NCBI GenBank assembly: GCA_030407005.1
Contig: JAUDYN010000004.1
Span: forward strand, 558,001 to 622,000
Direction of reading: 5' to 3'
DNA length: 64,000 nt
Origin: Desarmillaria ectypa
Taxonomy: Eukaryota > Basidiomycota > Agaricomycetes > Agaricales > Physalacriaceae
The notes under the pieces are model-generated. The model searched no databases, was not told the DNA's origin, and worked only from the letters and a program-made list of their open reading frames with translations. Numbering within the stretch: the stretch's first letter is position 1; each line of letters opens with the position of its first letter. Of the stretch, positions 14,210 through 16,265 are shown piece after piece. The translations under genes and the position numbers were made by a program.

Positions 14210-16265
14210 TCAGCCTAGCGCAGCGATGACTGCATTGTAAGCCGATTTTGGCTTGTAGTTGGTATCAAACAATAGCGGCGTCGAACTGGCCCGCCAGGAA
14301 TTCTAAAGACACATAACATCAGGCAACGAATGCAGTATGAGTGTTTGCCTTACAGCATCGCTGACTCCCCAGCTAGTAATTGAAACGCAAGCAGATTGTG
14401 CAACACAGGCATTTGCAACGGTAGTATAGTCCGAAGGACTGGCCCCTGCAATATCAAGTTCGGTGATGGCCACTTCCGTGCCAGCTGAGGCAAGCGCTGA
14501 CAGAGCTGCCTGGGCACCTCCAGCACCTCCAGCCTATAACACGTGTTAGACATGTCAAGCTAGGCATTTGAACTTACTGAGAGATGCATTTGGGTACCAA
14601 TACCATCAATGAGCTTCCCGTTCGCGTTGATCCGTTTCACCAGAGCGACCATTCCTAAGGTACATAAGAACAAGTCAGGATACGTTTAAGCCTCACGAAC
14701 CTTGGACTTTTGCGTTGTTCGAATCGAGGTTATAATCGTTGATGTATAATCTGTCCAACGGCGTTATCAGCAAGTCGAGAAGCCCTAGGTGTTGACCGAC
14801 TTTGCCGTGGGATCAGCAGCCCTCGCAGCTTTGAACGCAATAGTGACAAAGGACTTAAAGACAGGATCAGTAAGATATTGATGACAACAGTTAATTCGCA
14901 TACCTCTCCGAGTACGTTGGAGAAGACACTCGATCGCAGACTTCCGTCCTCGTTGAGGATCTCACTGAGAAATTGTCAACTAACCAGAATGATCAAGCAA
15001 AAACTGTCGTACTTGCAGACGTCCCACTATTATGAGGCATTAGTGAGTTCTAGAAACCTAAACAGCGGGGACCACGTACAGCTGCATGAAATGTATGAGC
15101 CACAGAAGGTGATCAGGTTTGAATGGGTGCATACCATACAACTTTCCCTTGTACCGCCCCGCAACATTAGCGATGTGGTTTTGAATAACAGAAGTCTTTG
15201 GATCAGGATAAAAACCTGGACAGCTGACTGATCTGCACAATAAAACTCACCAGTGTAGCTGCATCTCCAATAGCGGAGACCCATGAAGGAAGCTGAGAAT
15301 GCCATACTTGGGACGAGTGTCAGAATTATTCATAAATAGGTAAACTCAACAAACCTAGAGTATGTCCACGAATCATTTTGTTATGAGATACCGCCCAATT
15401 GACTAGGAAGTCCGAGCCAGAGAAAGTAAAGACTCCTCTGGTGTTCTCGGTTGCGTCCCACTGACATTCGGTGAGTGTGCGGAACAGAGTCGGTCGTGCA
15501 CCATCTGACCTTCATAGAATTCTCAGGTGTCACCTTCATCGATAACGCTGTTAGTTCAGTTGGAAACCGAGAAGTAGTCTTACCTGGCCAAAATCAGAAA
15601 CCAAAAGGGCTGAGTTCGCTAGTGAGTATACCTGTCAGTGTGTATGTGGTGAATCCTTCGACCAGCGACAAACCCGCAATGTTGATAGTACCCTGATCGG
15701 CACAAGAACCCTATTGCACCAGTGTTAACATTGGATATCGTTGACGGTCAGACACGAACCCAAAAACGTTTGCCTTTGGCAACAAATTTCCCGTTCAGAC
15801 CACTCCCAGTAGAAACGGGTCCAGAAGCTGTTGTGGTAGACGCAGGAATTGTAGTAGTCGGTACATTAGAGGCTGGCTGGCATCTAACAAGTGAGCGAGG
15901 ATCGGTTTTGTACTCCAGGCTCATCCATTAGAATATACGTACTGATAGTAATAGGCGTTTATAACTGTACATGTACTGCCGCTATCACCTAGAAAAGAGT
16001 AAGTGAGGATCGAGCGCTGATAAAATCTAACGGTTGATATTTACAGATGGTCTAGAAGTTAAAAATCAGTTATTGAAGAAAACGTCGGAGTAAGGTTATA
16101 GCTTACACTGCCGGTGTATCCTATCCCTCCGCCTTAAAGACGCAGAACAATCAGTACGAGGTCACCGTTAACATATAGAGAAGGCACACATTGGCCCCAC
16201 ACAGCAACAGCGGTGGTTTGTTGCAAGATGCAAGCCAGAGTAATGATAGACAGGAGACCAAACAT
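14210..16265 (-). CDS. secreted CBM1-GH10 endo-beta-1,4-xylanase, 19 exons, 375 aa
   Basis: Cleaves xylan in plant cell walls. I rebuilt it exon by exon; all joins keep the frame from the ATG at 16263-16265 to the TGA at 14210-14212. Exons, in transcription order: 16265-16190, 16132-16107, 16051-16045, 15988-15943, 15883-15760, 15710-15674, 15618-15584, 15533-15510, 15460-15355, 15306-15251, 15195-15135, 15081-15080, 15026-15013, 14964-14904, 14853-14801, 14750-14701, 14654-14578, 14533-14354, 14302-14210. Residues 1-~20 are a signal peptide ([11 protein letters not shown]). Residues ~21-57 are a cellulose-binding CBM1 (W-G-Q-C-G-G-I-G-Y-T-G, then C-Q-P). A Ser/Thr/Pro linker follows, then the GH10 barrel with P-E-N-S-M-K-W-D-A-T-E, G-H-T-L-V-W-H-S-Q-L-P, W-D-V-C-N-E (acid/base Glu about 206) and I-T-E-L-D-I-A-G (nucleophile Glu about 310). 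Exon 12 is only 2 nt. Confidence 0.95.
15080..15081 (-). other. 2-nt microexon (CT) of the xylanase gene
   Basis: Two 53-nt introns flank it: 15082-15134 (GTATGC..TGCAG) and 15027-15079 (GTACGT..AATAG, with a CTAAT branch-like site). Exon 11 ends in phase 1 (K-L-Y plus G) and exon 13 starts with TGG. Only the added CT gives GCT (Ala) and the family motif Y-A-W-D-V-C-N-E; skipping it shifts the frame. No other AG in the interval restores the frame without a stop. Confidence 0.85.
16045..16051 (-). other. 7-nt microexon in the CBM1 of the xylanase gene
   Basis: ACCATCT, preceded by TTCTAG and followed by GTAAATATC on the minus strand. It supplies Thr-Ile and the first base of a Cys codon (T-I-C-D-S-G), completing the conserved CBM1 cysteine spacing. 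Confidence 0.9.

What the first reader, a model, noticed from the sequence alone, without database searches (positions are those of the whole stretch)
15027..15134. 2-nt microexon encodes half of the Ala next to the GH10 active site
In the xylanase gene, exon 11 ends K-L-Y plus one base and exon 13 starts W-D-V-C-N-E. Between them lie two introns of exactly 53 nt, each with good donor and acceptor, separated by only CT. Including CT gives the family motif Y-A-W-D-V-C-N-E and a frame that stays open to the stop 175 codons later; omitting it destroys both. This would be among the smallest exons known, and its recognition, probably by sequential splicing, is unusual.
Basis: partly seen in the sequence, partly recalled or inferred. 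Interest (0 to 1): 0.88.

Follow-up and report, generated by a model that had tools for sequence, protein, structure and literature searches.

The report
Two-nucleotide exon in mushroom xylanase genes
A mushroom xylanase gene appears to use an exon only two bases long to encode part of its active-site motif; the sister genes found in the same genome do so too, and many public gene predictions for related fungi break at exactly this spot.

Summary
On the minus strand lies a complete 19-exon CBM1-GH10 xylanase gene (375 aa). Exon 11 ends K-L-Y plus G; two 53-nt GT-AG introns follow, separated by CT (15081-15080), then a 14-nt exon. With CT the protein reads Y-A-W-D-V-C-N-E and stays open for 175 codons; without it the frame breaks. 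A spliced aligner given relatives' proteins picks CT unprompted; 0 of 400 shuffled gaps match its score. Deposited genome models carry an indel here in 52 of 105 window-type and 42 of 112 distant-type cases, against a median of 1% or less, and 0 of 21 environmental or UniProt-only proteins. No RNA of this gene was available; stepwise splicing is inferred. One-nt exons are proven in plants and Fusarium, and 2-nt exons are already mentioned in print, so this is a well-replicated new member of a known kind.

The parts
14210..16265 (-). CBM1-linker-GH10 xylanase gene, 19 exons, 375 aa (ATG at 16265, stop ends at 14210)
   Evidence: manual model, all 18 introns GT-AG, no internal stop; the catalytic part is recovered independently by the spliced aligner; residues 81-374 match PDB 1b30 at E 3.1e-119
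15135..15195 (-). exon 11, 61 nt, ends ...K-L-Y plus G
15082..15134 (-). intron 11, 53 nt, GTATGC...CATGCAG; possible branch site CTCAT 15099-15095 (CTAAT in four of the six close copies)
   Evidence: the branch site is a pattern match only
15080..15081 (-). exon 12: the 2-nt microexon CT, second and third base of the Ala codon of Y-A-W-D-V-C-N-E
15027..15079 (-). intron 12, 53 nt, GTACGT...CATAATAG; possible branch site CTAAT 15043-15039
   Evidence: the branch site is a pattern match only
15013..15026 (-). exon 13, 14 nt, TGGGACGTCTGCAA = W-D-V-C-(N)
14965..15012 (-). intron 13, 48 nt, GTACGA...TTCTCAG
14904..14964 (-). exon 14, 61 nt, begins T-GAG: completes Asn and carries the Glu of the N-E motif
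16045..16051 (-). exon 3, 7 nt, ACCATCT, in the CBM1 part
   Evidence: the deposited model P0001 of a paralogue has the same peptide GYTGSTICDSGST

Best explanation
CT at 15081-15080 is a real, constitutive 2-nt coding exon of a GH10 xylanase gene. It lies between two ordinary short GT-AG introns, each with its own donor, acceptor and possible branch site. Shown from sequence: the parts, the frame, the family motif, conservation in paralogues. Inferred: both introns are recognised as short introns (intron definition) and removed one after the other, since spliceosomes cannot sit on both sides of two nucleotides at once. If intron 11 goes first, TATG+CT rebuilds a normal upstream exon for the GTACGT donor; if intron 12 goes first, CT joins the 14-nt exon. 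The three bases next to that donor read GCT in both orders, so sequence does not tell them apart. The product is Y-A-W-D-V-C-N-E, the strand carrying the catalytic acid/base Glu (role recalled from GH10 knowledge). The exon most likely arose because two introns came to lie two nucleotides apart in one conserved codon.
For: Complete model with 18 GT-AG introns of 44-59 nt; one fused gap of 108 nt would be nearly twice the longest. With P0009 (jgi source) as query, the spliced aligner chose CT unprompted in L024-L031, eight of eight copies (window copy included), with no frameshift or stop in any; forbidding its donor cost 33 score units in L024-L029 and 13.5 in L030/L031. Five other usable queries (two environmental, two UniProt-only, one genome model) gave CT in all four loci tried, 20 of 20 usable runs; a sixth query failed at cropping. 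Synonymous sites between L024 and L030 are saturated and their intron interiors are 46-66% identical, yet AGCTGTACGTG is unchanged. Downstream of CT, dN/dS is 0.05-0.12 in four comparisons with L024, so the frame restored by CT is under selection. The 13 window-type proteins of environmental source (jgi/lgn, one also metaclust) and the 2 UniProt-only ones among the best 120 all have the clean motif. Those 13 sit on contigs of 1207-2040 nt, shorter than the 2056-nt span of this gene from start to stop codon, hence probably transcripts (inferred). Two solved xylanases align as YAWDVLNE and YAWDVVNE.
Against: No RNA from this gene or species could be examined. Some exon of 3 nt or less can be placed in 58 of 400 shuffled gaps, and the best shuffle scored 252 against 255. 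None of the four deposited models of window-type own-genome paralogues has CT as a separate exon; three of them (P0001, P0008, P0022) keep intron 11 as coding sequence. In L030/L031 the alternative costs only two inserted residues.
Confidence: 0.93

Rival explanations
1. Intron 11 is really coding: the mRNA keeps it and splices from TAC|GTGGTC to TGGGAC, putting 20 residues ([20 protein letters not shown] in P0001) in place of the Ala, as in deposited models P0001 and P0008.
For: Two deposited models read this way, a third (P0022) keeps intron 11 and drops W-D-V-C-N, and intron 11 is open in that frame in L024-L029.
Against: In L030/L031 the same reading hits an in-frame stop. Variable sites among the six close copies fall 3/4/3 over codon positions in intron 11, against 11/6/47 in the CDS. 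None of the 15 environmental or UniProt-only window-type proteins has such an insert. The models of copies that are 90-99% identical disagree with each other.
Confidence: 0.03
2. The 108 nt are removed as one intron and CT is skipped, either as the normal product (frameshift, no active C-terminal half) or as a regulated off-switch leading to decay.
For: The outer donor and acceptor are canonical, so skipping is possible in principle.
Against: The C-terminal 175 codons are under purifying selection in the CT-restored frame. A 108-nt intron would be nearly twice the longest of the gene. Both halves hold a possible branch site, which is weak evidence since the pattern is short. Constitutive skipping is therefore very unlikely; low-level or regulated skipping is not excluded.
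Confidence: 0.02
3. Pseudogene, assembly error or sequencing error: the gene is broken here and CT is a coincidence.
For: One related locus, L032, is degenerate with indels and stops.
Against: Ten of the 11 loci give models of the catalytic part with no stop or frameshift; the same arrangement in eight copies on two contigs, and GT in two more genes, cannot be one error; dN/dS is low among close copies.
Confidence: 0.01
4. A nested intron (stwintron): one intron sits inside a splice element of another, with no exon between them.
For: Two adjacent introns in a fungus; stwintrons are a known fungal arrangement (search listing and starts of abstracts).
Against: After removal of intron 11 the junction reads ATG-CT-GTACG: no donor is rebuilt across it, and removing everything loses CT and the frame (sequence).
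Confidence: 0.01

Closest known systems
1-nt exon of Fusarium CYP621A P450 genes (PMC12940212; parts 1 and 2 of 3 read)
   Same: Fungal gene; ultra-short exon in the middle of a conserved motif; needed for phase; fused intron more than twice the median size; conserved in orthologues; gene models nearly all wrong at the site.
   Different: One nucleotide instead of two; supported there by SRA reads from two species; P450, not a glycoside hydrolase; one orthologous exon rather than two exons at different places in two lineages of one family.
1-nt exon of Arabidopsis APC11 (PMC4674806; part 1 of 3 read) and of plant VPS55 (PMC8831610; passages)
   Same: Exon shorter than a codon, flanked by introns, missing from annotation.
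   Different: Proved by cDNA and reporter constructs (APC11) or RNA-seq and RT-PCR (VPS55); plants; in APC11 the base lies 333 nt into a 422-nt interval, so the introns are longer.
Exons of 2-5 bp in Arabidopsis, Drosophila and humans (stated in PMC12940212 with a citation that I did not see)
   Same: Exons down to two nucleotides have been reported before.
   Different: I saw only the one-sentence statement; genes and evidence were not checked.
[quoted passage not shown] passages) and Phanerochaete chrysosporium P450 microexons of 2-10 aa (PMC1184071; passages)
   Same: Basidiomycetes with many short introns and very short exons.
   Different: In the passages seen, Phlebia is a general statement about predicted genes (BRAKER1 with RNA-seq) with no locus given for a 2-nt exon; no GH10 active-site exon is described in them.
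Plant microexon misannotation (PMC8831610; start of abstract and passages)
   Same: Conserved microexons pervasively missed, giving wrong proteins.
   Different: Plants, RNA-seq based; in the passages seen the cases shorter than 3 nt are 1 nt.
Recursive splicing (PMC13149111, passages; ratchet points of zero exon length are recalled)
   Same: A 3' splice site next to a 5' splice site, so stepwise removal is needed.
   Different: Here two nucleotides stay in the mRNA and both introns are about 50 nt.

Membership tests
Ultra-short coding microexon (shorter than one codon) | Flanked on both sides by canonical splice sites of introns of viable size | tested here: met
   GTATGC...CAG|CT|GTACGT...TAG, 53 and 53 nt, gene range 44-59 nt
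Ultra-short coding microexon (shorter than one codon) | Needed for reading frame and conserved motif | tested here: met
   Forbidding its donor forces a frameshift and a lost residue in L024-L029 or a two-residue insert in L030/L031
Ultra-short coding microexon (shorter than one codon) | Conserved in related genes while the surrounding introns diverge | tested here: met
   CT in eight of eight intact window-type copies, window copy included; AGCTGTACGTG identical in L024 and L030 although intron interiors are 46-66% identical and synonymous sites saturated
Ultra-short coding microexon (shorter than one codon) | Present in mature mRNA | not testable with these tools
   No RNA of this gene available; environmental proteins of relatives have the clean motif, 13 of 13 and 8 of 8 in the two lists
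GH10 xylanase | Whole-domain similarity to solved GH10 enzymes | tested here: met
   Residues 81-374 match 1b30 at E 3.1e-119; PF00331 matches inside this locus
GH10 xylanase | W-D-V-x-N-E motif intact | tested here: met
   YAWDVCNE with CT; 1b30 has YAWDVLNE in the alignment
Stwintron, [D1,2] type | Removal of the internal intron joins the two halves of a donor of the external intron | tested here: not met
   Junction after intron 11 removal is ATG|CTGTACG; the GT of the next donor lies wholly downstream (sequence; definition from abstracts)
Recursive-splicing ratchet point | Zero-length exon inside a long intron (recalled) | tested here: not met
   Two nucleotides lie between the sites and are needed in the product; total gap 108 nt

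The most novel reading that the evidence does not exclude
Exons of two nucleotides at the catalytic motif are a widespread, old feature of mushroom GH10 xylanases that arose at least twice, five nucleotides apart, in two GH10 lineages. They would make up a natural series for asking how a spliceosome handles exons shorter than a codon, and would be a main reason why close to half of the deposited mushroom GH10 models examined here are wrong at the active site. DNA of other species was not available, so the spread beyond this genome rests on where protein models break and on what intron remnants they contain (for example KLYGK and KLYGM, as expected from a phase-1 donor after TATG).
Probability: 0.5. 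Interest if true: 0.75.

Novelty: new member of a known kind. Interest (0 to 1): 0.62.

Why it matters
Exons shorter than a codon test the limits of splice-site recognition, and few are well documented. This family offers ten clean loci with two different exons (CT and GT) at two positions, a CC variant in a degenerate copy, and varied intron lengths, all tied to one catalytic motif, which suits a minigene study. It also has a practical side: the catalytic motif is broken in a large share of the deposited mushroom xylanase models examined here, so enzyme surveys that rely on such models will discard or misclassify working enzymes.

Tried and rejected
Single 108-nt intron, intron 11 retention, pseudogene and stwintron were considered and rejected (see rivals). 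Duplicate origin of the two 53-nt introns: a global alignment of the two shows scattered matches only, no sign of duplication (read by eye), and the equal length is not kept in paralogues. RNA structure around the exon: z-score 0.10, nothing unusual.

My first full model ran into an early stop because I had chosen a wrong acceptor for exon 7; one search is the mended model, with the acceptor 13 nt further on giving A-A-N-S-A. My first aligner run on L034 needed a frameshift elsewhere in the gene, because only GT donors were allowed; with GC donors allowed the model is clean. The GT microexon was found both times.

Those bearing on 2-nt exons or microexons in fungi, mushrooms or GH10 are; none listed a paper on a 2-nt exon in GH10. 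The library holds open-access papers only, and (20 of 67; 15 of 89; 15 of 17; 10 of 119) listed only part of their hits.

L032 was given to the aligner for description only; it is degenerate and its CC exon is weakly supported (loss 1.5 units). The homologue lists are the best 120 of 5171 and of 3402 hits, so the breakage counts are not a random sample. The clean/broken labels come from a hand-made pattern; one search is the alignment-based check. The GH10 count of 11 loci is a lower bound by the tool's own note. No structure prediction, and no scan of viral, prokaryotic-genome or metagenome contigs, was run (the metagenome cap was 0).

Full report
What is there. The gene is on the minus strand. 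A full model runs from ATG at 16265 to the stop ending at 14210: N-terminal leader, CBM1, linker and GH10 domain, 375 aa, 19 exons, 18 GT-AG introns of 44-59 nt. The stretch that encodes K-L-Y-A-W-D-V-C-N-E is cut into four exons...AAGTTGTATG (end of exon 11), CT (exon 12, 15081-15080), TGGGACGTCTGCAA (exon 13, 14 nt) and TGAG... (exon 14). The two introns around CT are each 53 nt. After CT, 175 codons and the stop follow in one frame.

Is it more than chance. Shuffling the 108-nt gap 20,000 times gave a suitably placed AG-nn-GT in 5.9%, one restoring Ala in frame in 1.9%, and one also with pyrimidine-AG and GTANG in 0.02%. For the GT exon of L033 and L034 the same three figures are 15.5%, 7.9% and 0.23%, and 11.0%, 5.0% and 0.035%. 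A spliced aligner that I wrote (free exon length) found some exon of 3 nt or less in 58 of 400 shuffled gaps of the window copy; none reached the real score of 255, though the best had 252. One locus alone would be good but not decisive evidence.

Paralogues. The window's own assembly (G000, 40.6 Mb; the window is C27:558001-622000) holds at least 11 GH10 loci (23 matches in 11 places, all fetched). With an environmental protein of a relative as query (P0009 for the window type, P0121 for the distant type), the aligner placed a 2-nt exon at the catalytic motif in 11 of 11 loci without being told to: CT in L024-L031, CC in L032, GT in L033 and L034. Ten of the 11 models have no stop or frameshift. 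L032 is degenerate (16 stops in its model) and counts for little, although GCC would still encode Ala. Forbidding the donor after the 2-nt exon cost 33 units in L024-L029, 13.5 in L030/L031, 19.5 and 21 in L033 and L034, and 1.5 in L032. Five further usable queries (P0007, P0013, P0026, P0033, P0115) gave CT in L024, L029, L030 and L031 in 20 of 20 runs; the P0013 runs also needed 8-10 residue deletions, because my crop of that query was too long. Two queries (P0121, P0125) gave GT in L033 and L034 in 4 of 4. The remaining 8 of 32 runs failed at cropping.

The second exon is not at the same place. In L033/L034 the parts are AGAGT | GT | ATTCGTGGGATGTC, giving R-V-Y-S-W-D-V-I-N-E. Its introns lie 7 and 5 nt before the Trp codon, against 2 and 0 nt in the window-type genes. 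The donor after GT is GTAAGT. Protein P0121 (lgn source, 12 member sequences, a 1384-nt contig) reads GHYAGKVYSWDVINEP there, as the GT model predicts. It is probably a transcript, but for this shorter, less intron-rich gene the contig length alone does not prove that. Whether the two exons are independent inventions or one block that slid by five nucleotides is open.

Conservation. L024 and L030 have saturated synonymous sites, and their intron interiors match at 46-66% of aligned positions (18/39 to 23/35 over the 14 introns of the catalytic part). AGCTGTACGTG across the exon is nevertheless identical. dN/dS downstream of CT is 0.05-0.12 for L024 against L025, L026, L028 and L029. L030 versus L031 is less constrained (0.22 downstream, 0.60 upstream, on few changes). 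With the loose pattern CTNAY each of the eight window-type copies has at least one possible branch site in both introns, but so short a pattern is weak evidence. In L024 and L028 the one near the end of intron 11 is CTCAT where four close copies have CTAAT, and in L026 the CTAAT of intron 12 is TTAAT. L033 has no CTNAY match in either intron, and L034 none in its first.

The rival in the databases. The six listed deposited models of its GH10 genes are all broken at this site: P0001 and P0008 keep intron 11 as coding sequence, P0022 keeps it and loses W-D-V-C-N, P0002 loses the motif, P0122 gains three residues, and P0123 loses the strand before S-W-D-V. P0001 appears to be L028 rather than the window copy (KAKSAY against KPKSAY); I saw no separate entry for the window copy in the listing. 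Reading intron 11 as coding fails because L030/L031 have a stop there, and because variable sites in it show no codon pattern (3/4/3 against 11/6/47 in the CDS).

Beyond this genome. In an alignment of 105 genome-derived window-type models, 52 carry an indel of two or more residues in the 8-residue window KLYAWDVC; the median window has 1% and the next peak 4 of 105. In the L033/L034 type, 42 of 112 do at AGKVYSWD, the median is 0 and the next peak is 9 of 112. At that next peak 2 of 7 environmental proteins differ as well, so it is probably natural variation. Environmental and UniProt-only proteins show 0 of 14 and 0 of 7 at the catalytic site, the reference row left out. A pattern count agrees: 58 of 105 and 53 of 112 broken, against 0 of 15 and 0 of 8. 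Environmental proteins come from uninterrupted frames and are in part clean by selection; what counts is that such full-length frames carry the predicted motif. Several broken window-type models begin their insert with YGK or YGM, as expected from running on into GTAAG or GTATG after TATG. Others begin YAVS or YAVR, which fits a single intron after a complete Ala codon plus a short next exon. So the 2-nt exon is probably present in some but not all of these species, and the 14-nt exon may also contribute to the breakage. No DNA of other mushrooms was available, so this part is inference.

How it works. Each intron has its own splice sites, so ordinary short-intron recognition could be enough. 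Two nucleotides cannot hold two spliceosomes at once, so removal must be stepwise (inference). The three bases before the intron-12 donor are GCT both before and after removal of intron 11, so sequence does not tell which goes first. No unusual RNA structure was found around the sites.

What is known. One-nucleotide exons are proved in Arabidopsis APC11 (PMC4674806, part 1 of 3 read) and supported by RNA in plant VPS55 (PMC8831610, passages) and in Fusarium CYP621A (PMC12940212, parts 1-2 of 3 read). The Fusarium paper also states that exons of 2-5 bp are known in Arabidopsis, Drosophila and humans. [quoted passage not shown] This case is therefore a new member of a known kind. What is unusual is its repetition in all 11 GH10 loci found in one genome, at two positions, inside a catalytic motif, together with the matching breakage of public models.

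Noticed in passing
L033 and L034, before SWDVINE: The distant GH10 genes on C28 and C29 have their own 2-nt exon, GT, flanked by GTTTAG and GTAAGT, five nucleotides upstream of the window-type position.
   Followed up: yes
Public GH10 protein models (P0001-P0240): Genome-derived models break at the catalytic motif in 52 of 105 and 42 of 112 cases against 1% or less in the median window; the 21 environmental or UniProt-only proteins compared do not.
   Followed up: partly
G000 contig C27, about 515-751 kb, and C12: A recent expansion of GH10 copies (six copies about 90-99% identical over the aligned stretches, five of them on C27 on both strands); L025-L027 lack CBM1 sequence (models P0008 and P0022).
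   Followed up: partly
L032 (C6): Degenerate GH10 copy with indels; intron 13 is cut to a remnant of about 11 nt and the microexon reads CC.
   Followed up: partly
window 16051-16045: A 7-nt exon (ACCATCT) in the CBM1 part of the same gene.
   Followed up: no
L033, L034: Probable GC-AG introns: GGACAG|GCAAGT in both near the 3' end, and AAATGG|GCACGT in L034 where L033 has GTACGT.
   Followed up: no
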